DNA of 64,000 bases, from contig NZ_BBOX01000048.1 of the NCBI RefSeq assembly GCF_001553455.1, positions 1 to 64,000 of the forward strand. Reading direction: 5' to 3'. This document shows positions 5,117 through 59,605 of the stretch, piece after piece. This DNA is from Streptomyces hygroscopicus subsp. hygroscopicus (GTDB lineage: Bacteria; Actinomycetota; Actinomycetes; Streptomycetales; Streptomycetaceae). Every line of letters starts with the position of its first letter. The first letter of the stretch is position 1. Both the position numbers and the translations under genes were made by a program. The notes beneath the pieces were generated by a model. That model saw nothing but the letters and a program-made list of their open reading frames with translations. It had not been told where the DNA came from and did not search any database.

Positions 5117-5500
5117 GTGGGCGATCGGCGACGCGCCGCTGACTGGCCCGGTCCGCCGACCGCGACCCGCGCACGGCGCATCGTCCACCGCTCGACCACC
5201 CCCACCGGCCGCCCCGACGTCGTCTCCGCCACGGTCATCGTCCGCGACGACGGCACACCGGACGCCCGGCCGCTCATCACCTGGGGCATCGGCGCCGGCG
5301 GCCTCGCCGACGGCTGCGCGGGTCCGGCCGGTTCCCCCGGGGCACCGCGACCGAGGCCCCGCGGAGCGGCCTGGCGCTGCGCCGCGGCTGGGCTGTCGCC
5401 GTCACCGACTACGAGGGCTGGGCACCCCGGACGACCACCTCTACGGCCGACCGGTCCGAACCCGGCTGACGGACGAACCGGCCTGGGGCAACCACCCCTG
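5117..5500 (+). pseudogene. Decayed secretory lipase (LIP family) fragment
   Basis: Three successive plus-strand frames read as parts of one lipase of the secreted LIP type. Frame one (about 5117-5330) gives ARRIVHRSTTPTGRPDVV, then SATVIV and RPLITWGIGAGGLAD. A second frame (about 5355-5430) gives LALRRGWAVAVTDYEG. A third (about 5415-5480) gives LGTPDDHLYGRP. In intact relatives these follow in one frame, with a longer stretch between the first two. The amino end, the catalytic serine region and the C-terminal half are absent, so this is a remnant with frameshifts and deletions. Family recognition is from memory of the conserved pattern. Confidence 0.6.
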
Positions 5501-5628
5501 ACCACCACACCGGCCCGCGCGTCACCGTTCCCCGAACACCACACCAATCCGCGCGTCACCGTTCCCCGAACACCACACCAGCCCGCGCGTCACCGTTCCC
5601 CGAACACCACACCAATCCGCGCGTCACC
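5500..5628 (-). repeat. 34-bp tandem repeat that includes the TetR stop codon
   Basis: The unit begins at 5517, 5551, 5585 and 5619 on the plus strand (core GCGCGTCACCGTTCCCCGAA), with an exact 34-bp period and a degenerate copy upstream. The TGA stop of the neighbouring TetR gene (5624-5626) lies in the last copy, so each copy repeats the TGA. Since 34 is not a multiple of three, the copied stops fall in successive frames. Confidence 0.85.
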
Positions 5629-6328
5629 CGGTCCGCTCGGGCGGCCACCGCTCCCCCCGCAGGAGGTTCCCCAGCCCGGCCCAGGCGAAGTTCATCAGGG
5701 TGGCCGCGGCCTCCTTGGCCGAGGGCCCGCCCGCCTTCCTGTCCCCCGCCCAGTCCGCGAGCGACTCGGCGGCGCCCACCAGCGCATGCGCGAGCCCGGA
5801 CACCTCGGTGTCCGCGAGGCCCCGGGCCCGCGGTACCCCGCCCGCGCGCTCCCGCGCCGCCGCCCCTATCAGCTGCTTCACGAACTCCACGATCTCCGCC
5901 CGCATCGCGGCCACTTCGAGCGCGTAGGGCTGACCGCGCGTACGCGCCTGCGTGTGCAACAGCCGCCAGCCGTCGGGATGTTCGGCCGTATGCGCGAAGA
6001 AGCCGCTCAGCCCGCTCCACAACTGCCGGTCCGCGGGCGCGTCCCGCTCCACGGCGGCCCGCACCGCGGTCACCAGCGCCGCGGCCTCCCGCCGTATGCA
6101 CGCCGTGAACAGCTCTTCCTTGGAGTGGAGATAGAGATAGACCAGCGGTTTGGAGACCCCGGCCAGTTCGGCGATGTCGTCCATCGAGGCATTCTGATAG
6201 CCGCTGCGCGCGAAGGCCCGCACCCCCGCGTCCAGCATCTGCTGCTCCCGCACCGCCCGTGGTACGCGCTTGCTCCTCGTCGCCCCGCCCACGCAGGCCG
6301 CCCCCTTCGATCGTGCCCCCGCACACAT
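5624..6328 (-). CDS. TetR/AcrR-family transcriptional regulator
   Basis: A 234-residue one-domain-plus-sensor repressor. The N-terminal helix-turn-helix reads ASMDDIAELAGVSKPLVYLY at about residues 47-66, followed by HSKEELFTACIRR. The C-terminal half is the variable ligand domain and shows no recognisable ligand family. It is divergent from a secreted esterase gene, with 129 bases between the two starts, so the esterase is the likely target together with itself. The ATG at 6328 gives a basic leader of about 20 residues; an internal start is possible. Its 3' end lies in a 34-bp tandem repeat. Confidence 0.88.
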   Translation of the reverse strand: MCAGARSKGAACVGGATRSKRVPRAVREQQMLDAGVRAFARSGYQNASMDDIAELAGVSKPLVYLYLHSKEELFTACIRREAAALVTAVRAAVERDAPADRQLWSGLSGFFAHTAEHPDGWRLLHTQARTRGQPYALEVAAMRAEIVEFVKQLIGAAARERAGGVPRARGLADTEVSGLAHALVGAAESLADWAGDRKAGGPSAKEAAATLMNFAWAGLGNLLRGERWPPERTG

Positions 6329-6457
6329 ATCGCGGCAAGCCTACGTGGAGCCACCGACGCCGCCCTTGCCACGGCCGCCCGCCGCCGTCAAAGTTTCAAC
6401 TGAGTACGCACCGCGCCCCGTTCAGCTCCGTCACGCAGCCGCGAAGGAGAACGAACG

Positions 6458-7474
6458 ATGCCGAACCGCCGCCGAGCCGTCGCCGCGCTGACCGCGCTCG
6501 CCGCCGCGCCGCTCCTCCCCCTCCCCGCGGAAGCCCGTGCCGCGGGAACCGGCTCCTCCGCGGGCCGCTCCCCGGAAGCCCTTTCCGGCTCCCGGACGCC
6601 CGCCCACGCGCGCCTCGTCGCCGCGGACCGCGTCAGCGAACGCGTCCTCGACCTGACGATCGACTCCCCCGCCCTGGGCCGCGAGGGACACGCCCGCGTC
6701 CTCCTCCCCACCGGCTACGACCGGCGGCCCCACCGCCGCTGGCCCGTCCTCTACCTCCTCCACGGCTGCTGCGACCCGGGCCCCGGCTGGGAGGCGTGGA
6801 CCCTCAACACCGACGTCGAGGGCATCACCGCCGACACCCCGGCCCTGATCGTCTCTCCCGAGGGCGGCCCCGTCGGCTTCTACTCCGACTGGTGGAACGG
6901 TGGCCGCTACGGCCCGCCCGCCTGGGAAACCTTTCACCTGGCCGAACTGCGCCCGCTGCTGGAGCGCGCCTTACGGGCCAACGGCCGCCGTGCGATCGCC
7001 GGTCTGTCCATGGGCGGCTTCGGCGCCCTCTCCTACGCCGCCCGCCACCCCCGTCTCTTCCGCGCGGCGGCGTCCTTCAGCGGGGTCGTCCACACCACCC
7101 TCGACCCGGCCGGGGTCCAGGGCATCCTCACGGGCGGCGGCGCCGACCCGACGGCCCTCTGGGGAGACCCGGCCGCCCAGTCCCCGCTCTGGGACGCCCA
7201 CAACCCGTACGCCCTCATCCCCCGGCTCCCCCGCGGCTACCCGGTCTACCTCGCCTGCGGCAACGGCGCTCCCGGCCCCCTCGATCCCCCGAGCCGCCCC
7301 GAGGACACCCTGGAACGCGGCCTCGGCGAGATGGCCGGGCGCTACGCACGCCGCGCCCGCGGCCACGGCCTGGCCGTCACCGCCCACCTCTACGGCCCCG
7401 GCACCCACACCTGGCCCTACTGGGAGCGCGAGCTGACCCGCGCCCTCCCCCTGCTCACCGCCCCGCTCATCTGA
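6458..7474 (+). CDS. Secreted esterase, antigen 85 / esterase D fold, with a TTA codon
   Basis: A 338-residue alpha/beta hydrolase with an N-terminal signal peptide (MPNRRRAVAALTAL, cleavage near ARA). Core motifs are LYLLHGCCD (oxyanion hole), the nucleophile elbow GLSMGG with its serine, and a late histidine in GTHTWPYW. The family includes mycolyltransferase-like esterases; the substrate here is unknown. The ATG is set by GAAGGAG eight bases upstream. Codon 172 (6971-6973) is TTA, the leucine codon read by the bldA tRNA. I found no other in-frame TTA codon in the genes I scanned by eye. A divergent TetR gene lies next door. Confidence 0.88.
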   Translation: MPNRRRAVAALTALAAAPLLPLPAEARAAGTGSSAGRSPEALSGSRTPAHARLVAADRVSERVLDLTIDSPALGREGHARVLLPTGYDRRPHRRWPVLYLLHGCCDPGPGWEAWTLNTDVEGITADTPALIVSPEGGPVGFYSDWWNGGRYGPPAWETFHLAELRPLLERALRANGRRAIAGLSMGGFGALSYAARHPRLFRAAASFSGVVHTTLDPAGVQGILTGGGADPTALWGDPAAQSPLWDAHNPYALIPRLPRGYPVYLACGNGAPGPLDPPSRPEDTLERGLGEMAGRYARRARGHGLAVTAHLYGPGTHTWPYWERELTRALPLLTAPLI

Positions 7475-7504
7475 CCCGCCGAGGTTTGCTACGGTCGGGA
7501 GGAA

Positions 7505-7547
7505 CCCGACGAGACGCGCCGTACCGGGACCCGCAAAGACGACGCAC
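7505..7547 (+). ncRNA. Guanidine-III (ykkC-III) riboswitch
   Basis: The 43 bases match the class III guanidine aptamer as I remember it: a CCCG/CGGG stem (7505-7508 with 7525-7528), a loop containing ACGAG and GCGCCGTAC, and a 3' AAGACGACGC strand able to pair back with GCGCCGT as a pseudoknot (one mismatch). It ends 32 bases before the ATG of an SMR exporter and just ahead of its ribosome site CGGAGG. This is the position expected for guanidine-induced translation or anti-termination. Confidence 0.85.
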
Positions 7548-7579
7548 CCCGTAACGAGAGACTTCACGGAGGTGCCGTC

Positions 7580-7900
7580 ATGGCATGGGTCCTGCTGGTC
7601 ACGGCCGGGCTGTTCGAAATCTGCTGGTCGATCGGCATGAAGCTGAGCGACGGCTTCACCCGGCTGTGGCCCGGCGTGGTCACCGTCGCCGGTCTGATCG
7701 TGAGCATGGGGCTGCTGAGCGTGGCGGTGAAGAGCCTGCCCATCGGCACGGCCTACGGCGTCTGGGTCGGCATCGGCGCGGTCGGCACCGCGCTGCTGGG
7801 CATGCTCCTCTTCCACGAACCGGTCACCCCGGCCCGGATCTTCTTCCTGCTCCTGCTGGTGGTGGCCATCGTGGGCCTGGAGGCCACGGCGGGCGAGTGA
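7580..7900 (+). CDS. gdx: SMR-family guanidinium exporter (Gdx/SugE)
   Basis: A 106-residue protein with four predicted membrane helices. The essential membrane glutamate is in MAWVLLVTAGLFEICWSIGM, and the SugE/Gdx signature AYGVWVGIGAVGTALLGM is present. Gdx proteins exchange guanidinium for protons and dimerise in an antiparallel way. The guanidine-III aptamer directly upstream supports guanidinium rather than drugs as substrate. The ATG at 7580 follows CGGAGG at 7567-7572. The gene stands alone and is followed by a strong hairpin shared with the convergent symporter gene. Confidence 0.93.
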   Translation: MAWVLLVTAGLFEICWSIGMKLSDGFTRLWPGVVTVAGLIVSMGLLSVAVKSLPIGTAYGVWVGIGAVGTALLGMLLFHEPVTPARIFFLLLLVVAIVGLEATAGE

Positions 7901-7907
7901 ACGACGA

Positions 7908-7940: not shown

Positions 7941-7957
7941 GCTCGCCGTCAGGGACG

Positions 7958-9469: not shown

Positions 9470-9498
9470 GACAAGTACGTTAACACCGCCGCTTTGAG

Positions 9499-9523: not shown

Positions 9524-9542
9524 TGAGGGACGGAAACGCATC

Positions 9543-10557: not shown

Positions 10558-10579
10558 GGGGCTCGCCACGGCAGCGCAC

Positions 10580-10760
10580 GGGCCCTCGGCGCCGTCCTTA
10601 CGGTGCGCACGGGTCGTTCGCACCGCTCTTATGGCCCGCACGGGGCGGCGGCACCGCCTTTACGGCCCGCACCGGGCGTTCGCGCCGTCCTTACGGTGCG
10701 GACCGGGCGTTCCGCATCGCCCTTACGGTGCGTACCGCGGTGGCGCCGCCCTTGCGGACC
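10580..10760. repeat. Degenerate ~31-bp tandem repeats between udgX and the GNAT gene
   Basis: About five imperfect units, each with a core like CCTTACGGTGCG followed by ACCGGGCGTTCGC and spaced about 31 bases apart. They fill the space between the end of udgX and the start of the GNAT gene. No coding potential is evident. Confidence 0.65.
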
Positions 10761-10809
10761 CGAACCCGCCGTCCCGCACCGCGTCCCGCCGCCCGTGCGT
10801 GCGGGAGGC

Positions 10810-11469
10810 TCAGCCGAGGACCTCCGCCGCGACCCTCAGATCCGCCACCAGGCCCTCGTACACCGCCTCCCGGTCATCGGCGCGCAGCACCGCGGAGGGG
10901 TGGATCGTGGGGACGACCAGCCCGCCGTGCGCCGGTCCCGACGCATCGCTCTCCAGCCGCGTCCCGCGCTCCTTGGTCACCCGGAACGACGAGCCCAGCA
11001 GCGCCTTGCCCGCCGTGGCGCCGAGCGCCACGATCACCTCGGGGTCGATCAGCTCCACCTCGGCCTCGAGCCACGGCCCGCAGGCGGAGATCTCGCGCAG
11101 GCTGGGCGGCTTGTGGATGCGCCGCTTGCCGCGCTCGGGGACGTGGGTGAACTTGAAGTGCTTGACGGCGTTGGTGACGTACGTCTCGTCCGGGTCGATC
11201 CCGGCCTCGTCCAGGGCGCGGTCGAGGACCTTGCCCGCCGGGCCCACGAAGGGCTTGCCCTGCCGGTCCTCCTGGTCGCCGGGCTGCTCGCCGACGAGCA
11301 TGACCCGGGCGCCCGGGTCACCGGCGCCGAAGACCGTGCGGGTGGCATCGCGGTGCAGCGGGCAGCCGCGGCACCCGGCGGCCGCTTTCCGGAGCGCGCC
11401 CAGATCGGCGCCCTCCGGAACGAAGGGGGCGGCGGTGTACGCGTCCTCGGGGCTCTTCGTACCGGCCAT
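10810..11469 (-). CDS. udgX: Uracil-DNA glycosylase UdgX
   Basis: A 219-residue member of the uracil-DNA glycosylase superfamily. Motif A reads GEQPGDQED and motif B HPSAVLR. The UdgX hallmark loop KRRIH is present, whose histidine (H119) forms a covalent bond with the abasic sugar after uracil excision in characterised UdgX. Cluster cysteines are visible at C33, C36 and C130; the fourth expected position shows KHFKF, with no Cys. The protein would act in DNA repair. It lies between mqnE and the GNAT gene, all on the minus strand. Confidence 0.9.
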   Translation of the reverse strand: MAGTKSPEDAYTAAPFVPEGADLGALRKAAAGCRGCPLHRDATRTVFGAGDPGARVMLVGEQPGDQEDRQGKPFVGPAGKVLDRALDEAGIDPDETYVTNAVKHFKFTHVPERGKRRIHKPPSLREISACGPWLEAEVELIDPEVIVALGATAGKALLGSSFRVTKERGTRLESDASGPAHGGLVVPTIHPSAVLRADDREAVYEGLVADLRVAAEVLG

Positions 11470-13715: not shown

Positions 13716-14501
13716 CTAGGCCGTTCCCCGGTCCCGGTCCCCACCGAGTTCCCCCTCCCACCGGCGGTACAGCTTGTGCGGCACCCCCGCCGCGTCCAGC
13801 GCCCGCCCCGCGACGAAGTCCACCAGATCCTGGATGTGCGTCGCCCCCGCGTAGAACGCCGGCGAGGCGGGCAGTACCACCGCGCCCGCCTCGTCCAGCG
13901 TCACCAGATGCCGCAGCGTCTGCCCGTTCAGCGGGGTCTCACGCACCGCGACCACGAGCCTGCGCCGTTCCTTGAGCGTGACGCTCGCGGCCCGCTGGAG
14001 CAGATCCTTCGACAGCCCGAGCGCCACCCCGGCCACACACGCGGTGCTCGCCGGGACGATCAGCATCCCCTTGGTCGGATACGAACCGGAGGACGGCCCG
14101 GCCGCCAGGTCCCCGGCCGCCCAGTGGGTAACGTCCGCGACCCCGGAGGGCACCTCGAACGCGTCCGGCGTGCCGTCCGCACCGCGCGAGAGCCAGCGGC
14201 GCAGATCGTCGCGCCAGTGGGCGTCCCGGAACGCGATCCCCGTCTCGTCCAGCAGCGTCAGCCGGGACGCCCGGCTGACCACCAGGTCGACGGCCTCCCC
14301 CGCCGCCAGCAGCGCGCGCAGCACCGCGGCGGCGTACGGCGTCCCGGACGCGCCGGACACACCGACCACCCAGGGACGGCGCCGGCTCACTTCTTCGTGC
14401 GGCCCGTAAGGCTCATGCGGCCAGTAGGGCTCGTGCTGCCCATAAGGCTCGTGCTGCCCATCAGATTCGTGCTGCCCGTAAGGCTCGTGCGGCGGCTCCA
14501 C
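13716..14501 (-). CDS. mqnM: Flavin prenyltransferase, UbiX type (MqnM)
   Basis: It makes prenylated FMN, the cofactor of the UbiD-type decarboxylase MqnL. The Rossmann-like core begins RRRPWVVGVSGASGTPYAAA and includes VPASTACVAGVALGLS and VAVRETPLN. At 261 residues it is about 38 longer than usual. The extra N-terminus consists of His/Pro/Tyr-rich repeats such as HEPYGQ, and a GTG at 14387 just before the core could be the true start. It is the last gene of mqnL-mqnP-mqnM, 24 bases after mqnP. Confidence 0.9.
   Translation of the reverse strand: MEPPHEPYGQHESDGQHEPYGQHEPYWPHEPYGPHEEVSRRRPWVVGVSGASGTPYAAAVLRALLAAGEAVDLVVSRASRLTLLDETGIAFRDAHWRDDLRRWLSRGADGTPDAFEVPSGVADVTHWAAGDLAAGPSSGSYPTKGMLIVPASTACVAGVALGLSKDLLQRAASVTLKERRRLVVAVRETPLNGQTLRHLVTLDEAGAVVLPASPAFYAGATHIQDLVDFVAGRALDAAGVPHKLYRRWEGELGGDRDRGTA
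14396..14487 (-). repeat. 18-bp repeats encoding HEPYGQ-like hexapeptides in mqnM
   Basis: Five imperfect 18-bp copies (CTCGTGCTGCCCATAAGG on the plus strand) lie between the annotated GTG and the conserved UbiX core. They read as HEPYGQ, HESDGQ, HEPYGQ, HEPYWP and HEPYGP. The period keeps the reading frame. Confidence 0.75.
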
Positions 14502-14525: not shown

Positions 14526-15449
14526 TCACCGGCCGAGGCCCCGCACCACGAGGTCCAGCAGCGCACAGCAGAAGAGGGCGATCCCGATGAAGCCGTTGAC
14601 CGTGAAGAAGGCACGGTTCAGCCGGGACAGGTCGCCGGGCCGCACGATCGTGTGCTCGTACGCGAACGCCGCGGCGACGATCAGCAGCCCCACCCAGAAG
14701 AACGCTCCGGCGTCCGTGGCCAGCGCGTACCAGACCAGCAGGGCCGTGGTGACCACATGGCAGACCCGCGCCCCGTACAGCGCGCCCGCGATGCCGAAGC
14801 GGGCCGGCACCGACCGCACCCCGTGCGCCCGGTCGGCCGCCACGTCCTGGCAGGCGTAGATCAGGTCGAAGCCGCCGATCCAGACGCCGATCGCCAGCCC
14901 GAGGATCACCGCGTCCCACGACCACTCCCCGGTGACCCCGATCCAGGCGCCGATCGGGCCGATGGCCTGTGCCAGGCCCAGGATGGCGTGCGGATAGTCG
15001 GTGAACCGCTTGCCGTACGGATAGACCACCATCGGCACCACCGCGACCGGCGCCAGCGCCAGGCACAGCGGCCCCAGCAGCCCGGCCGCGCCCAGGAAGA
15101 CGGCGAGCGCGATGAGCGCGCCGGTCCACGCGGTGCGCACCGACATCGCGCCGGTGACCAGCTCACGGCCGGCGGTGCGCGGATTGCGGGCGTCGATCTC
15201 ACGGTCGATGATCCGGTTGCAGGCCATCGCGAAGGTGCGCAGGCCCACCATGGCGACCGTGATCAGCAGCAGTCGCGTCCAGTGGACGGTGCCGTCCCAC
15301 AGCTGCATCGCGGTCAGGGCCGCGGTGTAGGCGAAGGGCAGGGCGAAGACCGAGTGCTCGATCATCACCAGCCGCAGAAACGCGCGGACCCGGCCGGGCG
15401 GCGCGGGTTCGGGGCCGAAGAGATCGGAGGTCGCGGAATCGGCGCTCAC
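14526..15449 (-). CDS. mqnP: UbiA-type prenyltransferase of menaquinone synthesis (MqnP)
   Basis: A 307-residue membrane prenyltransferase that adds the polyprenyl chain to the 6-naphthoate-derived ring. Both aspartate-rich diphosphate-binding motifs are visible: NRIIDREIDARN (about residues 73-84) and YACQDVAADRAHG (about 194-206). Eight or nine hydrophobic segments follow the family pattern. The GTG start at 15449 overlaps the mqnL stop codon as GTGA, so the two are translationally coupled. Confidence 0.92.
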   Translation of the reverse strand: MSADSATSDLFGPEPAPPGRVRAFLRLVMIEHSVFALPFAYTAALTAMQLWDGTVHWTRLLLITVAMVGLRTFAMACNRIIDREIDARNPRTAGRELVTGAMSVRTAWTGALIALAVFLGAAGLLGPLCLALAPVAVVPMVVYPYGKRFTDYPHAILGLAQAIGPIGAWIGVTGEWSWDAVILGLAIGVWIGGFDLIYACQDVAADRAHGVRSVPARFGIAGALYGARVCHVVTTALLVWYALATDAGAFFWVGLLIVAAAFAYEHTIVRPGDLSRLNRAFFTVNGFIGIALFCCALLDLVVRGLGR

Positions 15450-23598: not shown

Positions 23599-24297
23599 TC
23601 ATGCCCCGTAGCCCTTGGCGGCCCCCTTTACCGGCTTGGCGCCCGCGAGCAGATGGGCCGGGACCAGATCGCGGGCAGGTTCGCTGTAGCCCACCGACAC
23701 GATCCGGTCACCGCGGTAGGTGAAGCTGGTGAGGCTGGCCAGCGTGCACTGCCGCTTGCGCGGGTCGTGCCACAGCCGCCGCCGCTCCACGAAACTGCGC
23801 ACGATCCAGATGGGCAGCTGATGGCTGACGCACACCGCCTCGTGCCCGCGTGCGGTGTCCCGCGCCCGGCCCAGCGCCGCCATCATCCGCACCACCTGGT
23901 CGACATAGGGCTCACCCCAGGACGGGCGGAAGGGGTTGGTGAGATGACGCCAGTTGGCCGGTTTGCGCAGCGCGCCGTCGCCGACGCCGAAGGTCTTGCC
24001 CTGGAAGACGTTCGCCGCCTCGATCAGCCGCTCGTCCGAGGCCACGTCCAGGCCGTGCGCCTTGGCGATCGGCGCCGCCGTCTCCTGCGCCCGCTCCAGC
24101 GGGGAGGCGACCACATGGGTGATGTCACGGTCGGCGAGGTGCTCGGCGACCCGGTCGGCCATCTTCCGCCCCAGGTCCGAGAGGTGGTAGCCGGGCAGCC
24201 TGCCGTACAGCACACCCTCCGGGTTGTGCACCTCGCCGTGGCGCATCACATGGACGACGGTGATGTCGTTCTCGCTCTGTGTCATGTCACCCATCAT
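23599..24297 (-). CDS. Histidine phosphatase family protein
   Basis: A 232-residue phosphoglycerate-mutase-like phosphatase. The phosphohistidine motif is [18 protein letters not shown], the second conserved element [13 protein letters not shown], and the late histidine lies in [10 protein letters not shown]. The substrate is unknown. The first ATG overlaps the hemL stop as ATGA; ATG at 24285 is an alternative start. Coupling to hemL is also seen in other streptomycetes as I recall, but gives no function. Confidence 0.9.
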
Positions 24298-25610: not shown

Positions 25611-25840
25611 GTTGTCAGAGGCCGACGGAGTCCTGCGGCCGGGCGTTTCACAGCCCGCGCGCGGGGGAGGTCTCTCTCACAGAGATCGGGTTGCGCGGTA
25701 ATGGCCGCGAGTGGTCGGGTGGAGATATGCATCGCGGTGGCGAACTGGGTGAAGGGACTGACGACCGAGGCCCCGAGCGTTCCCGGTCCGGACGCCATCG
25801 GCGGGACGAGGCGGGCAGAGCAGGCAGGAGCGGGGGCCGT

Positions 25841-26275
25841 ATGGGGGTGACCTACAAGTACTTCGGCGCGCCTGATGGCGCCACCGCGGCCAGGGTCCCC
25901 ATCTCGATGCGCCCCGAGGAGCTGGGCGGCGACGAACTCGGCCACGGCATGTTCACGAAGATCAAGCCGGAGACGGTCGCGGCGATGGTCCTCACCGGCA
26001 TCGAGGGCGTTCCGCTCCACAAGGTCCCGCCGCTCGAACTGGTCGTGCTCCACCCCGACTACGCCGTCGTCAAACTTCCGATGACCGCCGTCGATCCGCT
26101 GCGCGGCGTGGGCGAGGAGGCGGTGGGCGCCGCGGCCTTCATCTGGTCCACGGTCCCCGACCGCGGCGGCCCGCGGGACGCGTTCACGGTCTATCAGCTG
26201 CTGCACGAATGGCAGGACTTCAGCCACCGGCTGCATGAGGCGGGGCACCAGCCGTACTGTCTGGTGTGGCCCTGA
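25841..26275 (+). CDS. Unrecognised small protein
   Basis: A 144-residue soluble protein beginning MGVTYKYFGAPDGATAARVP and ending QPYCLVWP. No signal peptide, membrane segment or motif is evident. The middle (ELVVLHPDYAVVKLPMTAVD) has a beta-strand-like pattern. I do not recognise the family. ATG at 25841 follows AGGAGCGGGGG; the longer frame upstream overlaps non-coding sequence next to hemL. Its stop codon is the first of a series repeated in tandem downstream. Confidence 0.65.
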   Translation: MGVTYKYFGAPDGATAARVPISMRPEELGGDELGHGMFTKIKPETVAAMVLTGIEGVPLHKVPPLELVVLHPDYAVVKLPMTAVDPLRGVGEEAVGAAAFIWSTVPDRGGPRDAFTVYQLLHEWQDFSHRLHEAGHQPYCLVWP

Positions 26276-26384
26276 AGGCGGCATCGTCTCAGGTGGTCCT
26301 GAAGGCCGCGACGTCTCAGGTGGTCCTTGAGCCCGCACGTCTCAAGTGGTCCTGATCCCACACGTCTCAGGTGGTCCTGCACCG
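26267..26384 (+). repeat. ~27-bp tandem repeats that begin with the stop codon of the gene upstream
   Basis: The unit TGGTCCTGA...CGTCTCAGG occurs four to five times. TGA copies lie at 26273 (the real stop), 26300, 26328 and 26353; spacings are 27, 28 and 25. Each unit also holds a small inverted repeat TCAGG-TGGT-CCTGA. The array lies between convergent genes. Confidence 0.8.
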
Positions 26385-27501: not shown

Positions 27502-28915
27502 GCGCCGGCCGGCCGTAGCCGCCCTTGCCCTCACGCTCGCCGTGGTTGCCCTGCTGGGCTTCCTTACGCTGCTTGCCCTGCTTGCCGTGGTCGTCGTCCT
27601 GTTCCTGCTCCGTACCGAGGACGCAACCGGTGTCCGGGTCGATGTAGACCTCGGTGATGGTGTGGTCGCACTCGACCTCCACGACCCACACCTTCTTGGG
27701 CTCCTGCTGGTGCGAGTTCTTGCGCTGGTCGTCCTTGCGCTGCTTGCCCTGCTGCTGGCCGTCGTGGCGCTGCTGGTCCTTGTCCTCCTGCTTGCGGTCG
27801 TCCTGGTGCTTGCCCTTGTGCTGCTGGTCGTCCTCGGGGCAGTCCTCCAGCTCGGCGCTGACGGCCTTGCCGCCGACCTCGCACTCGGCGATCTGGATCG
27901 CCTCGCCGATCGTCACCGGGGCGTTCCGCTTCTGGTCCTGGTGCTGGTTCTGCTGGTTCTTGTTCTGGTGCTGGTTCTTGTTCTGGTGCTCGTTCTGGTG
28001 CTGGTGCTGGTTCTGCTGGTGGTGCTCGTTCTGGTGCTGGTTCTGGTGCTGGTTCTGCTGGTGGTTCTCGTTCTGGTGCTCGTTCTGCTTCTGCTCCTGG
28101 CCGTGGTGTGCCTGGTCGTCCTGGTGCGCGGGAGCGGCGACGGGCCGCGCGGCGCTGCGGTCCTGGGACTCCTCACCGGACTGGGCCGCCTTGAACGGCT
28201 GGGCCACCTGCTCGACCTGCGCCATCGCGCGCTTCACCAGGTAGCTGTGCCCGTACTTCACGTAGCTGGAGTAGCTGCCGCCACCGTCCTGGCGCCCGTG
28301 GTGACCGTTGTCCTCCTGGTTTCCGGCGGCTTCCTGGCGCTCATTGTCGTCATGACGGCTGTTCTCGTCGTGGTTGCCGTTCTCCTTGTGGCCGCTGTTC
28401 TCGTCGTAGCGGCTGTTGGAGTCCTTGTTCCCGTTCTCGCCGTGGCCGCCGTTCTCCTCATGGCGGTTGTTCTCGTCATGCCGGTTGTTCTCGCCGTGGT
28501 GGCCGTTCTCGTCATGCCGGTTGTTCTCGCCGTGGTGGCCGTTCTCGTCATGGCGGTTGTTCTCGTCATGGCGGTTGTTCTCGCCGTGGTGGCCGTTCTC
28601 CTCATGGCGGTTGTTCTCGTCGTGACGGTTGTTCTCGTCATGGCGGTTGTTCTGGTCGTGACGGTTGTTGGAGTCCTTGTTGCCGTTCTCGCCGTGGTGG
28701 CCGTTCTCGTGCTGCGCCTTGTTGTCACCGTGCGCCCGGTTCTCGTGGCACGGGTGGTTCGGCGCCGTGTTCGGGCCGGGGGTGCTGCTCGTGGCCCATG
28801 CGGCTCCCGGAGCACCGGTGACCAGGGCCGCCGCCGCGATGGCGCCCGCTGAGGCCACGCCCCAACGCCGGAATGAACGACGAGAGCGCTGAAGGAATCT
28901 GTTCTGCTGGGTCAT
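27491..28915 (-). CDS. Secreted His/Asn/Gln-repeat protein with a split PepSY domain
   Basis: A 474-residue exported protein. Signal region: [15 protein letters not shown] then a hydrophobic run to AWA (about residue 42). Residues 83-160 are hexapeptide repeats ([12 protein letters not shown]); residues about 198-260 are a non-repetitive linker; residues 274-330 are His/Gln/Asn repeats (QNQHQNEHQ). A PepSY domain follows ([20 protein letters not shown], ..., [23 protein letters not shown]). It is interrupted at about 362-405 by a Lys/Gln/Asp/His-rich insertion and carries four Cys. High His content suggests metal binding; that is inference. No operon partner on its strand. Confidence 0.8.
27926..28096 (-). 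repeat. Coding repeats: His/Gln/Asn tract
   Basis: Short repeats of NQH and NEHQ codons (GTTCTGGTGCTG on the plus strand) encode residues 274-330 of the PepSY protein. Confidence 0.8.
28436..28669 (-). repeat. 18-bp coding repeats: [12 protein letters not shown] hexapeptides
   Basis: About thirteen 18-bp units (TTCTCGTCATGGCGGTTG and TTCTCGCCGTGGTGGCCG types on the plus strand) encode residues 83-160 of the PepSY protein. Two alternating unit types are mixed, as expected from repeated local duplication. Confidence 0.88.
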
Positions 28916-30087: not shown

Positions 30088-30324
30088 ATGAGGGTTGTCG
30101 TCGATCTCAACCGGTGCCAGGGCTATGCGCAGTGCGCCTTCCTCGCACCCGATGTGTTCGCGATGCACGGTGAGGAAGCGCTGCTGTACGACGCGCGGCC
30201 GGACGACACGCGGCGCGTGGACGTCCTGCGGGCGGTGGCGGCGTGCCCGGTCAGGGCCATCGCCGTGGAGGGCGCAGGCGGGAAGCGGGCGGCGGACCGG
30301 GTGGGTGTCCCCGATGGCGCTTGA
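30088..30324 (+). CDS. Ferredoxin ([3Fe-4S] type) for P450
   Basis: A 78-residue ferredoxin with cysteines C9 and C15 in RCQGYAQCAFLAPDVF and the last ligand in AACPVRAI. The C-x5-C...C-P spacing, with no Cys at the third position of the first group, fits the 3Fe-4S ferredoxins that feed cytochrome P450. ATG at 30088 follows GGAGG. It overlaps the ferredoxin reductase gene by 11 bases, and a P450 gene follows, giving a complete electron chain. Confidence 0.9.
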   Translation: MRVVVDLNRCQGYAQCAFLAPDVFAMHGEEALLYDARPDDTRRVDVLRAVAACPVRAIAVEGAGGKRAADRVGVPDGA

Positions 30325-31702
30325 CGGCTCCCTGGAGCGGCTCAGACGCGAGGGTCACATCGTCGTCGTGGGGGCTTCCCTGGCGGGGCTGCGGGCCGCC
30401 GAGACGCTTCGGGAGGAGGGCTTCACCGGCACGCTCACCCTGATCGGTGACGAGCCCTACGAGCCGTACGACCGCCCGCCGCTGTCCAAGCAGGTCCTGC
30501 TCGGCCGGGTGCCGGTCGACCATACGGCCCTGCCCCGGCGCCTCGCGATCGACGCACGGTGGCGGTTGGGCGTCGCCGCGACCGGGCTGGACATGGCGGC
30601 CAAACGGGTGGCCCTCGCCGATGGCACATCGGTGGAGTACGACCGGCTGCTGATCGCCACCGGTGTGCGCTCCCGTCCGTGGCCGAATGAGCTGGAGGCC
30701 GGACTGGACGGCGTCTTCACGCTGCGGACCAGGGACGACGCCGCCCGCTTGGTCCACCGGCTGAGGGCCGGGCCCCGCCGGGTGCTGGTGATCGGCGCCG
30801 GATTCACCGGCTCGGAGATCGCCTCCGTCTGCCGCGAGCGGGAGCTGCCCGTCACGGTCGCCGAACGCGGTCCGGCGCCCCTGGTGGGCGCCCTGGGCGG
30901 GGTGATCGGCGAGGTGGCGGCCGAGTTGCAGCATGAGCACGGCGTCGATCTGCGCTGCGGGGTGATGGTCACCGGGCTCGAGGGCGACGGTGCGGGCAGG
31001 CTGCGGCGGGCCCACTTCTCCGACGGCGACGCGCTGGAGGCGGAGGTGGCCGTCGTCGCTCTGGGGGCGACGCGCAACACCGAATGGCTCGCGGGGTCCG
31101 GACTGGCCGCGGGGCCGCGCGGGATCGCCTGCGACGCGGGGTGCCGGGCCTTCGACATACGGGGGATCGTCGCCGACGATGTCTTCGTCGCGGGGGACGT
31201 GGCCCGCTCCCCGCATCCGCTGTTCGGCTACCAGTTCCTGTCGCTGGAGCACTGGGGCAACGCGGTCGCGCAGGCCGAGGTCGCGGCGCACAACATGATC
31301 AGCCCCGGTGAGCGGCGCCGCCCGCATCTGTGGACGCCGTACTTCTGGTCGGCCCAGTTCGGCGTCAACATCAAGTCCGTCGGGGTCCCCAACATGGCCG
31401 ACCAGGTCATCGTCAGCCAGGGTTCACTGGGCGAACACCGCTTCACCGCGGCCTACGGCTACCAGGGCCGCGTCATCGCCGCCGTCACCTTCGACCAGGC
31501 CAAATGGCTGGAGTTCTACCAGCGGCAGATCGAACAGGCCGCGCCCTTCCCCCCGCCGTTCACCGCCGTCGACCGGCGGCCCGAAGGCATGCGGCCGGTG
31601 CCTGCCGGTTTCCCCGACCCCTCAGTGCCCACCCATGGCCCCGAGGTCACCGTCAGCGGCCACTCCCCGACCGACCAGCGCGTCACGTTCACCCCTGCCT
31701 GA
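30314..31702 (+). CDS. NAD(P)H:ferredoxin reductase (FAD, P450 type)
   Basis: A 462-residue pyridine-nucleotide-disulphide oxidoreductase. The FAD dinucleotide fold starts VVVGASLAGLRAAETL, followed by PYDRPPLSKQVL. The NAD(P)H fold is VLVIGAGFTGSEIAS, and the second FAD motif DDVFVAGDVAR. It would pass electrons from NAD(P)H to the ferredoxin encoded directly upstream. The last 60 residues are extra and Pro-rich. The ATG lies inside the ferredoxin gene; the stop codon opens a 19-bp repeat array. Confidence 0.92.
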   Translation: MALDGSLERLRREGHIVVVGASLAGLRAAETLREEGFTGTLTLIGDEPYEPYDRPPLSKQVLLGRVPVDHTALPRRLAIDARWRLGVAATGLDMAAKRVALADGTSVEYDRLLIATGVRSRPWPNELEAGLDGVFTLRTRDDAARLVHRLRAGPRRVLVIGAGFTGSEIASVCRERELPVTVAERGPAPLVGALGGVIGEVAAELQHEHGVDLRCGVMVTGLEGDGAGRLRRAHFSDGDALEAEVAVVALGATRNTEWLAGSGLAAGPRGIACDAGCRAFDIRGIVADDVFVAGDVARSPHPLFGYQFLSLEHWGNAVAQAEVAAHNMISPGERRRPHLWTPYFWSAQFGVNIKSVGVPNMADQVIVSQGSLGEHRFTAAYGYQGRVIAAVTFDQAKWLEFYQRQIEQAAPFPPPFTAVDRRPEGMRPVPAGFPDPSVPTHGPEVTVSGHSPTDQRVTFTPA

Positions 31703-31835
31703 CGCGGGCACCACCGCCTGATGCGGGCACCCCGGCCTGACACAGCCACCACCGCCTGACGCGGGCGCCACCGCCTGACGCCGACACCCGCAGCACCCGC
31801 GGCACCCGCGGCACCCGCGGCACCCGGAAGGACTC
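31697..31835 (+). repeat. 19-bp stop-codon repeats, then 9-bp repeats
   Basis: GCCTGA, the last codon and stop of the reductase gene, recurs at 31697, 31716, 31735, 31754 and 31773 with an exact 19-bp period (CGCGGGCACCACC between). A second array of GGCACCCGC 9-mers follows to about 31835, ending at the ribosome site GGAAGG of the P450 gene. Confidence 0.9.
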
Positions 31836-33082: not shown

Positions 33083-33178
33083 CGCGTCCGATGAGAGCCG
33101 TGTCCGACAAGGGCCATGTCCGATGAGGGCCATGTCCGACAAGGCCCGCGTCGGACAACGCCCGCGTCCGACAAGGCC
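33083..33178. repeat. Six 16-bp tandem repeats between P450 and rtcB
   Basis: Six consecutive units of exactly 16 bp (consensus CGTGTCCGACAAGGCC, alternating CGATGAG and CGACAAG forms) start five bases after the P450 stop. They end eight bases before the rtcB stop. The two genes are convergent. Confidence 0.92.
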
Positions 33179-33186
33179 CGGGTGTC

Positions 33187-41694: not shown

Positions 41695-41702
41695 CGCGAC
41701 CG

Positions 41703-41752
41703 AACGCGGAAGCGCCCCGCCCCCGGTGCCGGGGGCGGGGCGCTTCCGCGTT
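41703..41752. terminator. 50-bp near-perfect palindrome after argS
   Basis: Arms of 24 bases (41703-41726 and 41729-41752) are perfectly complementary with only TG between. The architecture is the same as at 17544-17593 but the sequence is unrelated. It lies between convergent argS and the peptidase gene. Confidence 0.85.
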
Positions 41753-41784
41753 CCCCCCGGAGTCCACCGGGCAGCGCCGGACCG

Positions 41785-41890
41785 CACGGCTCAGGGCAGC
41801 TCCGGGCCACAGCGCTCAGGGCGGCGCCGGGCCGCGGCGCTCAGAGGCGGGGCAGCATCTCAGGGGCAGCGCCTCAGGGGCAGCGCAGAT
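41785..41890 (-). repeat. Tandem repeats carrying copies of the peptidase stop codon
   Basis: Reading on the minus strand, the end of the peptidase gene (CGCTGCCCCTGA) is repeated with variation downstream. TGA copies begin at plus-strand TCA positions 41874 (real stop), 41860, 41841, 41816 and 41791, spaced 14, 19, 25 and 25. Confidence 0.8.
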
Positions 41891-43376
41891 CGCGCTTCGG
41901 CAGTTCGCCGGTCAGCAGGAAGTCCGTCACCCGCCGGTCCGCGCAGTCGCTGCCGTGGTTCACCCGGTAGGCCGCGCCGTGCCCCATCGCGTCCACGCTG
42001 ACCATCCGGGCCCGGTCTCGATAGGCGCGCCGCAGCTCGAGCGCCCCGCGGTACGGGGTGGCCACATCGCGCGTGTTCTGCACCAGCAGGACGTTCGACG
42101 GGCCCTGACCGGTGATCCGCACCGGCTTGTCCCGCGGCTTGTCGTGCCAGAACGCACAGGTGGTGACGTTCACCGGCATCCCAGCGGTCAGCGGGTGGCT
42201 CGTACGGCTGGCGGCGACGTCCCGCGCGTAGGCGGTCAGGGAGGTGGGCCACTCCACGTCGTTGCAGATGGTCGCGAGGGACACGGCCGCGATGTCCTGG
42301 GTGGGGTCGGCCGGTGCCGCGTCGGGCACCTTGCCGGCGTCCGCGTCGACGATCAGCTTGGCCAGGTCCTCGAAGGTGTCCGGGGAGTACAGGGCGCTCA
42401 GCATGCTCTGGCGGAGCACATTGCCGTTCAGCTCGGGCGGGTTGGCGCCGGGCCACGGCAGCGGGTTCGCGTCCAGCCGGGCGGCGAGGGCCAGGACCCG
42501 GCGGCGCACCCCGTCGGGGGTCCCGGCGAGCCGGACGGGGCTGCCGGGGGCGGAGGCCCAGGCGGCGAAGTCGGGGAAGGTGTCCTCGACGCCGACGGCG
42601 TAGTTGGCGAGCCAGCCGCGCTCCACCCGCTCCGGGTCCGGGTCGTCGTTGCTGTCCAGCACCCAGCGGTCGGTGTGCTCGGGGAACATCTGGGCGTAGA
42701 CGGAGCCCACGTACGTCCCGTAGGAGACGCCCCACGCGGACAGCTTCCGCTCGCCGAGCGCCCGGCGGATGCTGTCGATGTCCCGTGCCTCGTTGACGGT
42801 GCTGAGGGTGCGCAGCAGGTCACCGCCGTTGCGGGCGCAGGTGTCGGCGATGCGGCGGCCGGTGGTGACGTTCTCCGTGATGTCCCCGCCGGGGGCGGGC
42901 CAGGGCCGGGAGGCGAGCAGCGACAGATCGGCGGGGGCCAGATCGCATCCGGCGTGCGTGGACCGCCCCAGACCGCGCGGATCGAAGCTGACGATGTCGT
43001 ACGCGTCCCGCACCGACCGCGGCAGCCGCTTGCCGAGCGTGGTGGGCCGGTCCAGGCCCGGCGACCCCGGGCCGCCCGGGATCAGCAGCAGCGTGCCCCG
43101 GCGGGCCCGCGGCCGCTCGCTGGGGACGCGGGAGACCGCGAGGGAGATCCGCTCGCCGCCGGGATCGCGGTAGTCCAGCGGCACCTTCAGCGTGGCGCAT
43201 TCCTGACGGGGGTCGAGTCCGGTGCCCTCGCAGGCCCCCCAGCCGAGCGCGGTGGCGGTCGGGCCGGTCTGCCGCCGCGGGGTCGCGTCCGCGGCGGACA
43301 TGGTGCTGCCCAGGAGGGAGGCGGTGGCGGCGGTGGCGAGGGCCAGGACGGCGGTTCTGCCGGTCGTCAGTCTCAT
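41874..43376 (-). CDS. Secreted S33 peptidase (tripeptidyl aminopeptidase-like)
   Basis: A 500-residue secreted alpha/beta hydrolase of the SlpD/SlpE and TAP type. Signal peptide: MRLTTGRTAVLALATAATAS..., cleaved near ADA. The oxyanion region is LLIPGGPGSPGL, the nucleophile GVSYGTYVG, the aspartate lies in VQNTRDVATPY and the histidine in MGHGAAYR. Family members release N-terminal tripeptides from proteins outside the cell. The C-terminal TAP-like domain is present (TTCAFWH, CADRRVTDFLL). ATG at 43376 begins the signal; longer open frames are not coding. Confidence 0.92.
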   Translation of the reverse strand: MRLTTGRTAVLALATAATASLLGSTMSAADATPRRQTGPTATALGWGACEGTGLDPRQECATLKVPLDYRDPGGERISLAVSRVPSERPRARRGTLLLIPGGPGSPGLDRPTTLGKRLPRSVRDAYDIVSFDPRGLGRSTHAGCDLAPADLSLLASRPWPAPGGDITENVTTGRRIADTCARNGGDLLRTLSTVNEARDIDSIRRALGERKLSAWGVSYGTYVGSVYAQMFPEHTDRWVLDSNDDPDPERVERGWLANYAVGVEDTFPDFAAWASAPGSPVRLAGTPDGVRRRVLALAARLDANPLPWPGANPPELNGNVLRQSMLSALYSPDTFEDLAKLIVDADAGKVPDAAPADPTQDIAAVSLATICNDVEWPTSLTAYARDVAASRTSHPLTAGMPVNVTTCAFWHDKPRDKPVRITGQGPSNVLLVQNTRDVATPYRGALELRRAYRDRARMVSVDAMGHGAAYRVNHGSDCADRRVTDFLLTGELPKRDLRCP

Positions 43377-57978: not shown

Positions 57979-58778
57979 GCCGGCATCACGGCGGGCACAT
58001 CCCCGTCAGGTCCTTGCCGGCCGCTGTCGGCGCCGGGGGCGCCGGAGGGCGCGCGATGGGGCGCCACGGGAGGCGGTGGAACGGCCCCCGCGGCCTCCTC
58101 CGGAGCGGCGATCTCCTCGCCCGCCTTGCGCTGCTCGTGGAAGGCGAGGATCTGCAGCTCGATCGAGAGGTCGACCTTGCGCACGTCCACCCCGTCCGGA
58201 ACGGACAGCACGGTCGGCGCGAAGTTGAGGATCGAGGTGATCCCGGCGGCGACGAGCCGGTCGCAGACCTGCTGGGCCGCGCCCGCCGGGGTGGCGATGA
58301 CGCCGATCGAGACGCCGTTGTCCGTGATGATCTTCTCGAGCTCGTCGGTGTGCTGCACCGGGATGCCCGCGACCGGCTTGCCGGCCATGGCGGGGTCGGC
58401 ATCGATCAGCGCGGCGACCCTGAAGCCACGGGAGGCGAAACCGCCGTAGTTGGCGAGCGCGGCGCCGAGGTTACCGATACCGACGATCACGACCGGCCAG
58501 TCCTGGGTGAGCCCGAGCTCCCGCGAGATCTGGTAGACGAGGTACTCCACGTCGTAGCCGACCCCGCGGGTGCCGTACGAACCCAGATAGGAGAAGTCCT
58601 TGCGCAGCTTGGCCGAATTGACGCCGGCCGCGGTTGCCAGCTCCTCGGAGGACACCGTGGGGACCGAGCGCTCGGAGAGCGCGGTCAGAGCACGCAGATA
58701 CAGCGGTAGCCGGGCGACGGTGGCCTCGGGGATCCCTCGGCTGCGGGTCGCCGGTCGGTGAGTTCGGCCAGTTGCCAC
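57975..58778 (-). CDS. rex: Redox-sensing repressor Rex
   Basis: A 267-residue Rex protein. The N-terminal winged helix (PLYLRALTALSE to AGVNSAKLRKDFSYLG) binds DNA, and the Rossmann domain (VVIVGIGNLGAALANY) senses the NADH/NAD+ ratio. A domain-swapped C-terminal helix is followed by a Pro/Ala tail. GTG at 58778 is fixed by AGGAG five bases upstream. In S. coelicolor rex heads the rex-hemACD operon and represses it when NAD+ is high; this layout is the same, with hemB added. Confidence 0.96.
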   Translation of the reverse strand: MATGRTHRPATRSRGIPEATVARLPLYLRALTALSERSVPTVSSEELATAAGVNSAKLRKDFSYLGSYGTRGVGYDVEYLVYQISRELGLTQDWPVVIVGIGNLGAALANYGGFASRGFRVAALIDADPAMAGKPVAGIPVQHTDELEKIITDNGVSIGVIATPAGAAQQVCDRLVAAGITSILNFAPTVLSVPDGVDVRKVDLSIELQILAFHEQRKAGEEIAAPEEAAGAVPPPPVAPHRAPSGAPGADSGRQGPDGDVPAVMPA

Positions 58779-58852
58779 GGTGCTCCTGCGGGTAGAGCGA
58801 GGCTGCGGGCGGCCGGGTGTCACATGACCGCCCCATCGACAGCAGGCTATGT

Positions 58853-58874
58853 CTTTGTGAACGCGTGCACAAAG
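58853..58874 (-). promoter_or_regulatory. Rex operator (ROP) in the rex-hem promoter
   Basis: CTTTGTGAACGCGTGCACAA and its flank form a palindrome with one mismatch, matching the ROP consensus TGTGAACNNNTTCACA. On the minus strand TTGTGC and TAGCCT, 17 bases apart, form a promoter with the operator between them. It lies about 75 bases upstream of the rex GTG, which fits autoregulation. A weaker CTTTG-CAAAG pair lies at about 58887-58902. Confidence 0.9.
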
Positions 58875-59096
58875 ATGGTGTCCGCTTTGTCCGAGCAAAG
58901 TGACCGGTGTCACGCGTCTTTTCGGGCCGGACGCGGAACCAGGAACCGCCTCACACCGTTCCCGGAAGGCGCATGCGCACCGCTGGGCCGCCCACGGGAG
59001 CACAGGCCCTCACTCCTCACCTTTTTACCCCCGGACAGCAACAAAACGCCCACGATCGTAATCGACCGGGACCCCGATCCCGAACTCCTCGAACCC

Positions 59097-59200
59097 CGGT
59101 TCCGGACCACCCAGGCACCCGTTCCGGACCCATGGCGGACCCACGGGCCCCCGTTCCGGACCCATGGGCCGACCCCATGGGCACCCGTTCCGGACTCCAC
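59097..59200. repeat. Irregular repeats of CCCGTTCCGGACCCATGG
   Basis: The rex-glutaredoxin gap (about 450 bases) contains the Rex operator and then four copies of GTTCCGGAC (starting about 59099, 59121, 59153 and 59187) at uneven spacing of 22-34 bases. Nothing else recognisable is present in this gap. Confidence 0.7.
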
Positions 59201-59230
59201 GGCACCGGCCGGGCCACCCCGGCGGGCACA

Positions 59231-59518
59231 ATGGCGGACATGAGCCCGTTGCTGCGCCGCACCCCGCGCAAGAAGCCCACCGAGCGCACGGTCACGCTGA
59301 TCGGCAAGCCCGACTGCCACCTCTGCGAGGACGCCGAGGCCGTGATCAAGCAGGTCTGCGACGAGTTGGGCACCCCCTGGGAGAAGAAGGACATCACCCA
59401 GGACGAGGAGCTGTACCGCGCCTACTGGGAGCAGATCCCGGTGGTGCTCGTCGACGGCGAACAGCACGACTTCTGGCGCGTGGACCCCAAGCGGCTGCGC
59501 ACCGCGCTCGGCGGCTGA
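59231..59518 (+). CDS. Glutaredoxin-like (DUF836) thiol protein
   Basis: A 95-residue thioredoxin-fold protein (92 if ATG 59240 is used). The redox motif is GKPDCHLCEDAEAV (C-x-x-C), and the cis-proline region WEQIPVVLVDGEQHDFW. Family members may reduce mixed disulphides with mycothiol or act as NrdH-like donors; none is shown. Divergent from rex across 450 bases. Its last codons and stop are part of a 36-37-bp tandem repeat. Confidence 0.88.
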   Translation: MADMSPLLRRTPRKKPTERTVTLIGKPDCHLCEDAEAVIKQVCDELGTPWEKKDITQDEELYRAYWEQIPVVLVDGEQHDFWRVDPKRLRTALGG

Positions 59519-59605
59519 TCCCGCAACGCGGCGCAGTGCCCCGGCCGGCGGCTGGCCCCGCCCCCAGCGCAGTGCCCCGGCCGGCGGCTGATCCCGCACC
59601 CGGCG
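59510..59605 (+). repeat. 36-37-bp tandem repeat spanning the glutaredoxin stop codon
   Basis: GGCGGCTGA at 59510 (the end of the gene) recurs as GGCGGCTGG at 59547 and GGCGGCTGA at 59583, with GCGCAGTGCCCCGGCC between. About 2.6 copies. Confidence 0.85.

What the first reader, a model, noticed from the sequence alone, without database searches (positions are those of the whole stretch)
5500..59605. Tandem repeats anchored on stop codons at five unrelated genes
Five genes are followed by short tandem repeats whose unit contains the gene's own stop codon: TetR (5624, period 34), the unknown protein (26273, about 27), ferredoxin reductase (31700, exactly 19), S33 peptidase (41874, 14-25) and glutaredoxin (59516, 36-37). 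The sequences are unrelated, so they do not come from one mobile element. Each looks as if the last codons, stop and early 3' flank were duplicated in place. Where the period is not a multiple of three (34, 19), the copied TGAs fall in successive frames, building an all-frame stop cassette. I know of no described element with this rule. It may be a slippage hot spot at gene ends, or selected for ribosome release or termination.
Basis: seen in the sequence. Interest (0 to 1): 0.8.

Follow-up and report, generated by a model that had tools for sequence, protein, structure and literature searches.

The report
Gene-end tandem repeats that copy stops
Short repeats that copy the last bases of a gene, stop codon included, sit behind about one in sixteen of the gene ends examined in this Streptomyces and its relatives and often differ between species; they most likely arise by harmless local DNA slippage in the free space behind genes, not by a rule tied to the stop codon itself.

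Summary
The five arrays are real. Intergenic arrays occur in 230 of 1480 regions against 12-14 in shuffles. The stop-codon rule holds only in part. In 2.9 Mb from the own genome, five relatives and outside samples, 108 of 515 non-coding arrays cover a stop against 48 expected from random non-coding placement; starts are avoided, 10 against 53. But repeatedness spreads over the whole 3' flank without a sharp peak at the stop, and of 134 arrays in the first 80 bases, 60 cover the stop against 52 expected. Copied stops are no better kept than neighbouring bases and periods show no frame preference: no sign of a selected stop cassette. A weak excess at stops remains where a same-strand gene follows. 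Relatives often carry different arrays at the same gene ends, and in one gene of two relatives the first stop is lost and an in-frame stop 18 bases on, in the next repeat unit, ends the protein. Best reading: slippage-driven turnover in unconstrained 3' flanks, tolerated across the stop because the first copy keeps the protein whole.

The parts
5496..5628 (.). array 1: about 3.9 copies of a 34-bp unit between the TetR stop (5624-5626, minus strand) and the end of a remnant convergent gene (TGA 5499-5501, plus strand, read by eye)
   Evidence: arrays of other periods (11, 44, 11, 16) in G071, G112, G400, G181 behind the same gene end (sequences for three of them)
5624..6328 (-). TetR-family regulator whose stop lies in array 1
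   Evidence: Pfam PF00440, PF21943
   Evidence: none scored in G071, G400, G181, no orthologue read in G112
25691..26275 (+). unknown protein whose stop lies in array 2 (start codon uncertain)
   Evidence: ORF, no Pfam match
26266..26379 (.). array 2: about 4.3 copies, period 25-27
   Evidence: stop-covering arrays of period 14-15 in G071, G400 and G181, none scored in G112
30095..31702 (+). ferredoxin-reductase-like flavoprotein whose stop lies in array 3 (start codon uncertain)
   Evidence: Pfam PF07992, PF14759
31690..31788 (.). array 3: period 19 (38); in L075 and G181 the homologous first stop is lost and an in-frame stop 18 bases on is used
31785..31826 (.). separate 9-bp array between array 3 and the ribosome-binding region of the P450 gene at 31840
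41769..41886 (.). array 4: period 14 next to the stop and period 25 beyond it, between the stop and a long inverted repeat at about 41702-41753 (read by eye, not folded)
   Evidence: of the relatives only G071 has a scored array here (period 20), and the sequences differ
41874..43376 (-). S33-like TAP-domain hydrolase whose stop lies in array 4 (start codon uncertain)
   Evidence: Pfam PF08386, PF00561
59177..59518 (+). glutaredoxin-like protein whose stop lies in array 5 (start codon uncertain)
   Evidence: Pfam PF05768, gene call
59509..59606 (.). array 5: about 2.7 copies of a 36-bp unit between the stop and a conserved block before the next gene
   Evidence: stop-covering arrays of period 23-24 in G071 and G400, none scored in G112 and G181
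33083..33180 (.). example of an array of the same kind that nearly fills a convergent intergenic region without covering either stop (period 16)

Best explanation
These arrays are short, often species-specific tandem duplications of the DNA around gene ends that likely arise by slippage between short direct repeats and would be tolerated across the stop codon because the first copy keeps the protein whole. Steps. (1) Shown: 3' flanks are rich in arrays, 5' flanks near the start are not, and the stop is the left edge of that zone. (2) Shown: orthologous gene ends in relatives often carry different periods. (3) Shown: exact two-copy duplications have longer shared ends than chance, as slippage between short direct repeats would leave; the polymerase event itself is inferred. 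(4) Inferred: a duplication that covers the last codons, the stop and some flank leaves the gene intact upstream, so selection ignores it; one that covers a ribosome site, a promoter or a terminator is removed. (5) Inferred: because the gene end is a conserved stretch next to free space, it keeps seeding new copies, so repeat units seem tied to the stop. (6) Seen at one gene in two relatives: an in-frame stop in the next unit ends the protein where the first stop is lost. Lack of MutS may let such loops persist (inferred).
For: Echo profile of 12-mers: excess near-copies downstream are about 0.01-0.02 inside the gene, rise between -16 and -8, and are 0.10-0.14 from -8 to +36 in the clade; in convergent clade regions the interior (0.06-0.19) is on the whole higher than the stop (0.07-0.09). 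The coding-side fall-off resembles uniform duplication (predicted 1.00, 0.91, 0.58, 0.34, 0.18 of plateau at -8, -12, -16, -20, -24; same-strand clade regions 0.80, 0.63, 0.37, 0.13, 0.16 of the value at the stop). Arrays within 80 bases of the stop cover it 60 of 134 times against 52.2 expected (sum over four groups). Starts avoided: 10 against 53. Copied stops 0.782 identity against 0.818 at other offsets; 120 of 194 copied triplets still a stop; periods 38/37/30 over the three frames, against 592 of 643 multiples of three for arrays wholly in genes. 45 of 114 exact two-copy duplications share 4 or more extra bases, about 3 expected. Different periods at orthologous ends in 40 of 84 pairs, and in 22 of 36 where at least one array covers the stop. 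MutS_V in 0 of 25 genomes, NucS in 25 of 25, own genome included in both; NucS does not correct indels (PMC8228993, abstract and passages seen).
Against: Array starts, counted directly, are about twice as dense within 20 bases of the stop (0.025-0.031 per 10 bases and end) as further in (mostly 0.01-0.02), without correction for the room an array needs. In same-strand clade regions the echo profile is highest at 0 to +20 (0.15-0.16) and declines to 0.07-0.14 beyond, so the plateau is not strictly flat. With the whole intergenic region as the allowed space, a 1.6-fold excess at stops remains for same-strand neighbours in the clade (40 against 25.4, z 3.7); with zones of 120 or 150 bases z is 1.7-2.5 in the clade and up to 2.2 outside. 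Promoter constraint further downstream may account for this but was not shown. Arrays recur at the same gene ends more often than independence gives (84 of 360 species pairs both carry one, about 50 expected by hand), which could mean local hot spots; 44 of those 84 pairs share the period, so part is inherited. Long shared ends may partly reflect decayed third copies. My draft had odds of 0.75 here; adding the and one search points lowered it slightly.
Confidence: 0.72

Rival explanations
1. Gene ends are true mutational hot spots: transcription ending, R-loops or replication collisions just behind the stop raise the local duplication rate, so arrays form there preferentially.
For: Residual excess at stops with same-strand neighbours (40 against 25.4 in the clade, 13 against 8.4 outside); array starts about twice as dense near the stop; recurrence at the same gene ends.
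Against: No net excess in convergent regions, where two genes end (27 against 21.9 in the clade, 9 against 13.8 outside); broad profiles without a sharp peak; no clear excess within the first 80 bases (60 of 134 against 52.2).
Confidence: 0.16
2. The arrays are selected as stop cassettes: copied stops in several frames catch readthrough or frameshifted ribosomes behind leaky TGA stops.
For: TGA is the stop at 1236 of 1649 gene ends examined; one gene in two relatives ends at an in-frame stop in the next unit.
Against: Copied stop triplets no better kept than neighbours (0.782 against 0.818), in-frame copies keep a stop in 47 of 83 and out-of-frame copies in 73 of 111, no frame preference of periods. 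A survey of eubacteria found no compelling evidence for selection of extra stops (PMC6764699, abstract read).
Confidence: 0.04
3. The arrays are structured 3' UTR elements or terminators, kept for RNA folding.
For: Units are G+C rich; some contain small inverted repeats, such as GGCCCTGAGGCC at the 26275 orthologue in G400.
Against: Folding z-scores of 42 array-bearing same-strand ends (mean -1.20) do not differ clearly from 80 array-free ends (mean -0.64, p 0.13); period often differs between species; at array 4 a separate inverted repeat lies beyond the array (by eye).
Confidence: 0.05
4. The arrays come from a mobile or dispersed repeat inserted at gene borders, as described for MIRUs.
For: Position at gene ends.
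Against: Consensus units of the five arrays are unrelated; array 1 matches only itself in the genome; units match their own gene's end.
Confidence: 0.01

Closest known systems
Mycobacterial interspersed repetitive units (MIRUs)
   Same: Short repeats in actinobacterial DNA at gene borders.
   Different: MIRUs are described as repetitive, apparently mobile sequences that insert at start codons, with an ORF in the unit coupled to the gene (one passage of PMC12548453 seen). Here units are unrelated, each resembles its own gene end, and starts are avoided.
Tandem repeats of Borg elements
   Same: Fast-evolving, recently formed, arising independently from local sequence, loci rarely conserved between close relatives (PMC9879509, abstract and passages seen).
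   Different: Borg repeats are perfect and belong to archaeal extrachromosomal elements; here they are decayed, in bacterial genome contigs, concentrated in 3' flanks and often span stops.
TAACTGA direct repeats of Beggiatoaceae
   Same: Intergenic repeats that carry stop codons in all three frames and can overlap a gene's stop (PMC4679880, passages seen).
   Different: One fixed heptamer, mostly oriented toward start codons; here no fixed motif, and starts are avoided.
Fail-safe additional or tandem stop codons
   Same: Extra stops behind the primary stop.
   Different: Reported as conserved in yeasts (PMC1088959, start of abstract in the listing) and without compelling evidence in eubacteria (PMC6764699, abstract); here the extra stops look like a by-product of duplication and are not preserved.
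Bacterial minisatellites and VNTRs (recalled as a class)
   Same: Local tandem arrays in intergenic DNA that turn over quickly.
   Different: Distribution behind gene ends and different arrays at the same ends in sister species.

Membership tests
Intergenic minisatellite (locally formed tandem array) | head-to-tail copies beyond chance | tested here: met
   230 of 1480 intergenic regions against 12-14 in three shuffles
Intergenic minisatellite (locally formed tandem array) | unit derived from local sequence, not dispersed | tested here: met
   array 1 matches only itself in its genome; units match own gene ends; the other four units not searched genome-wide
Intergenic minisatellite (locally formed tandem array) | rapid change in unit or copy number | tested here: met
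   40 of 84 pairs of array-bearing orthologous ends differ in period, 44 share it; species level only, no strains compared
MIRU | one homologous dispersed family | tested here: not met
   consensus units unrelated; array 1 once in genome
MIRU | located at start codons | tested here: not met
   start overlap 10 of 515 arrays against 53 expected (start calls approximate)
Selected stop cassette | copied stops conserved above neighbouring bases | tested here: not met
   0.782 against 0.818 over 194 copies; leaving the triplet out of the alignment biases slightly against it
Selected stop cassette | period bias that favours a frame | tested here: not met
   38/37/30 over period mod 3 in 105 arrays
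Selected stop cassette | ribosome occupancy or readthrough over the array | not testable with these tools
   no ribosome profiling at hand
Terminator or 3' UTR structure | more stable fold than array-free ends | tested here: inconclusive
   mean z -1.20 (n 42) against -0.64 (n 80), p 0.13
Mutational hot spot at stops | excess of duplication at the stop over the rest of the 3' flank | tested here: inconclusive
   no sharp peak in profiles, no net excess in convergent regions, but 1.6-fold in same-strand regions of the clade and denser array starts near the stop

The most novel reading that the evidence does not exclude
Tandem duplication across the stop is a standing engine of C-terminal evolution in Streptomyces: each duplication lays down spare stops behind the gene, some in frame, so the primary stop can be lost harmlessly and the protein grows or shrinks by one repeat unit, as happened at the reductase gene in S. 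niphimycinicus (L075) and G181, with the gene end constantly reseeding its own 3' flank.
Probability: 0.25. Interest if true: 0.6.

Novelty: new variant of a known kind. Interest (0 to 1): 0.4.

Why it matters
It shows how a constrained edge can imitate a rule: repeats that seem tied to stop codons can follow from where duplication is tolerated. If general, 3' flanks of high-G+C actinobacteria are places of continual small duplication, useful as markers for telling close strains apart, a caution when repeats behind genes are read as regulatory, and a route by which gene ends move without a lethal readthrough step. Judged from titles and starts of abstracts, my searches listed no description of species-specific arrays re-forming at the same gene ends in Streptomyces; that is limited to the held open-access library.

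Tried and rejected
Mobile element: rejected for array 1 and unlikely for the rest (unrelated units). Stop cassette under selection: rejected as the main explanation. Structured 3' UTR: not supported but not excluded. Random placement over all predicted non-coding DNA was too generous a null, because long stretches without a gene call and promoter regions dilute it, so it was replaced by placement within the same intergenic region and within fixed zones behind the stop. Clade-specific increase: stop-covering arrays at 78 of 851 ends in the clade against 27 of 798 outside, but 583 of the outside ends come from one orthologous region of 76 loci; in the 20-genome outside sample it is 10 of 166, so the increase is suggestive only. 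Further stop relays: one search listed 11 arrays that reach more than one period into the gene; they were not followed up. A genome-wide census was not possible; 720,792 of 9,462,753 bases of the own genome were used (727,611). Genes were called by my own codon-usage script: stops are good, starts approximate, some genes missed. The MutS and NucS searches covered 25 genomes that do not include G071, G112, G400 or G181.

Dropped rows: one search left out L032 (beyond the window on the same contig), which included in trimmed form, and the four named clade loci L072-L075. Searches used only intergenic regions of up to 400 bases (at least 110, at least 165, at least 40, the others at least 20 or as stated). 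One search skipped arrays that could not fit its null (12, 19 or 39 of 150 in same-strand clade regions and 8, 18 or 28 of 66 outside, by margin; 1 of 76 and 3 of 35 in convergent regions). One search read 73 of the 80 fetched reductase loci; 64 had a recognisable next start.
Full report
Observation. The tandem-repeat finder reports all five arrays at the stated places, and reading the sequence shows the stop codon of each gene inside the repeated stretch. The genes are a TetR regulator, a protein without a Pfam match, a ferredoxin-reductase-like flavoprotein (followed by a P450), a TAP-like S33-type hydrolase and a glutaredoxin-like protein. The window belongs to the Streptomyces violaceusniger neighbourhood: the reductase is 90-93% identical in S. 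rugosispiralis, S. samsunensis, S. endocoffeicus and S. niphimycinicus (the name of the clade is recalled).

The window is not special. It holds 14 non-coding arrays of score 50 or more, of which 6 cover a stop. In 727,611 bases of the own genome there are 210 arrays not wholly in genes: 172 inside intergenic space, 34 at a stop, 4 at a start. Over 1480 intergenic regions from own, clade and outside genomes, 230 hold an array of score 50 or more, against 12-14 in three dinucleotide shuffles. As a check on the gene calls, 592 of 643 arrays wholly inside genes have a period divisible by three.

Enrichment at stops. Against random placement over predicted non-coding DNA, 108 of 515 arrays cover a stop where 48.3 are expected, and 10 cover a start where 53.1 are expected (sums over eight groups, 2.94 Mb). 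I read the cause as the shape of the permitted space. For each position around the stop I counted how often the 12-mer there has a near-copy 8-60 bases further on, minus the same count with partners exchanged between genes (intergenic regions of 110 bases or more). In the clade the excess is about 0.01-0.02 inside genes, rises between -16 and -8, and is 0.10-0.14 from there to +36. In longer regions (165 bases or more) it is, for same-strand clade regions, 0.15-0.16 from 0 to +20 and 0.07-0.14 beyond; for convergent clade regions it is 0.07-0.09 at the stop and 0.06-0.19 inside. Outside the clade the values are about half. On the start side the clade excess is near zero at the start and reaches 0.04 by 36 bases upstream. 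If duplications fall uniformly and survive whenever the unit reaches past the stop, the coding-side excess should fall to 0.91, 0.58, 0.34 and 0.18 of the plateau at -12, -16, -20 and -24; the observed values in same-strand clade regions, 0.098, 0.058, 0.020 and 0.025 against 0.155 at the stop, follow that with a somewhat steeper fall. Against this reading, array starts counted directly are about twice as dense within 20 bases of the stop as further in (0.025-0.031 against mostly 0.01-0.02 per 10 bases and end), though that count does not allow for the room an array needs.

Conditional tests. Placing each array at random within its own intergenic region, with overhang up to one period allowed and 20 bases kept free before a following start, gives in same-strand regions 40 observed against 25.4 expected in the clade and 13 against 8.4 outside; in convergent regions it gives 27 against 21.9 and 9 against 13.8. 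Restricting to arrays within 80 bases of the stop gives 28/25.5, 17/14.8, 12/8.5 and 3/3.4 (clade same-strand, clade convergent, outside same-strand, outside convergent), in all 60 of 134 against 52.2. With zones of 120-150 bases the same-strand excess has z 1.7-2.5 in the clade and 0.6-2.2 outside, and convergent regions show none. I read the rest as promoter constraint further downstream, but a weak hot spot is not excluded.

No sign of selection on the copied stops. In 105 arrays whose first copy holds the gene's stop (of 1649 gene ends), 194 further copies were aligned without using the stop triplet: identity at the triplet is 0.782, elsewhere 0.818; 120 of 194 triplets are still stops; in-frame copies keep a stop in 47 of 83 and out-of-frame copies in 73 of 111; periods fall 38, 37 and 30 over the three residues mod 3. 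Leaving the triplet out of the alignment biases slightly against it. This agrees with a survey that found no compelling evidence for selection of extra stops in eubacteria (PMC6764699, abstract).

Relatives. Four relatives of 87-91% DNA identity over the reductase region (G071, G112, G400, G181) are largely collinear with the window, and many alignment breaks fall at arrays. At the 26275 gene end the unit is 27 in the window and 14-15 in G071, G400 and G181, with none scored in G112; at 31702 it is 38 (19), 19, 37 and 19 in the window, G071, G112 and G400, and none is scored in G181; at 23599 the window has none and the four relatives have 22, 14, 26 and 22. Many again carry the gene's own stop. 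At array 4 only G071 has a scored array, and at array 5 only G071 and G400. Over 44 gene ends, 84 of 360 species pairs both have an array, 100 have one and 176 none (about 50, 168 and 142 expected if independent, by hand; low score threshold, and convergent regions count twice). Of the 84, 44 share the period and 40 do not; of the 36 in which at least one array covers the stop, 14 share it and 22 do not. So some arrays are inherited and many are not. Behind the reductase gene the distance to the next recognised start is 64-150 bases in four clade species and 42.5 at the median in 60 others; several outside species have arrays of their own there (for example L076, L095, L101, L108). The clade's spacer appears to have grown by duplication (inferred).

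A stop relay. In S. niphimycinicus (L075) and G181 the reductase's TGA reads GGA and the frame ends at a TGA 18 bases on, inside what matches the next repeat unit, adding six codons. I count this as one event. It shows that such a stop can serve, not that it is kept for that. It was the only clear case among the 44 gene ends compared; three other ends showed stop shifts of 1 to 6 bases that I do not tie to arrays.

Mechanism. Of 114 exact two-copy duplications, 45 share 4 or more extra bases at their ends, about 3 expected by chance, as slippage or recombination between short direct repeats would leave. MutS is not found in 25 of 25 genomes (own included; it is found in 11 of 14 control genomes) while NucS is present in 25 of 25, and NucS does not correct indels (PMC8228993, abstract and passages). 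That MutS-type repair would act on loops of 15-40 bases is not established, so this is background, not proof.

Verdict. The arrays are real, abundant and fast-changing. Their tie to stop codons is mostly the edge of the space in which duplication is tolerated. The different arrays at the same ends in sister species and the stop relay are the parts worth following.

Noticed in passing
window 5057-5501: The gene convergent to TetR looks like a remnant here: about 2.0 kb present in G071, G400 and G181 is missing at about 5057-5146, and about 0.6 kb more between 5459 and the TetR end in G071.
   Followed up: partly
window 14395-14493: An 18-bp array behind the gene ending at 14526 has the same period in all four relatives, so it looks inherited.
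   Followed up: partly
window 10574-10782: Large 31/62-bp array; three relatives have arrays of period 22-48 behind the neighbouring gene end at 10810.
   Followed up: no
window 28347-28710: In-gene array of 54/90-bp period in a repeat-rich protein; alignments to relatives break here.
   Followed up: no
L197 (G181) gene end: About 16 copies of the pentamer CCTGA running over a gene's stop.
   Followed up: no
L229 (G400) gene end: Ten-base repeats with TGA in each copy behind the stop of a gene ending in acidic codons.
   Followed up: no
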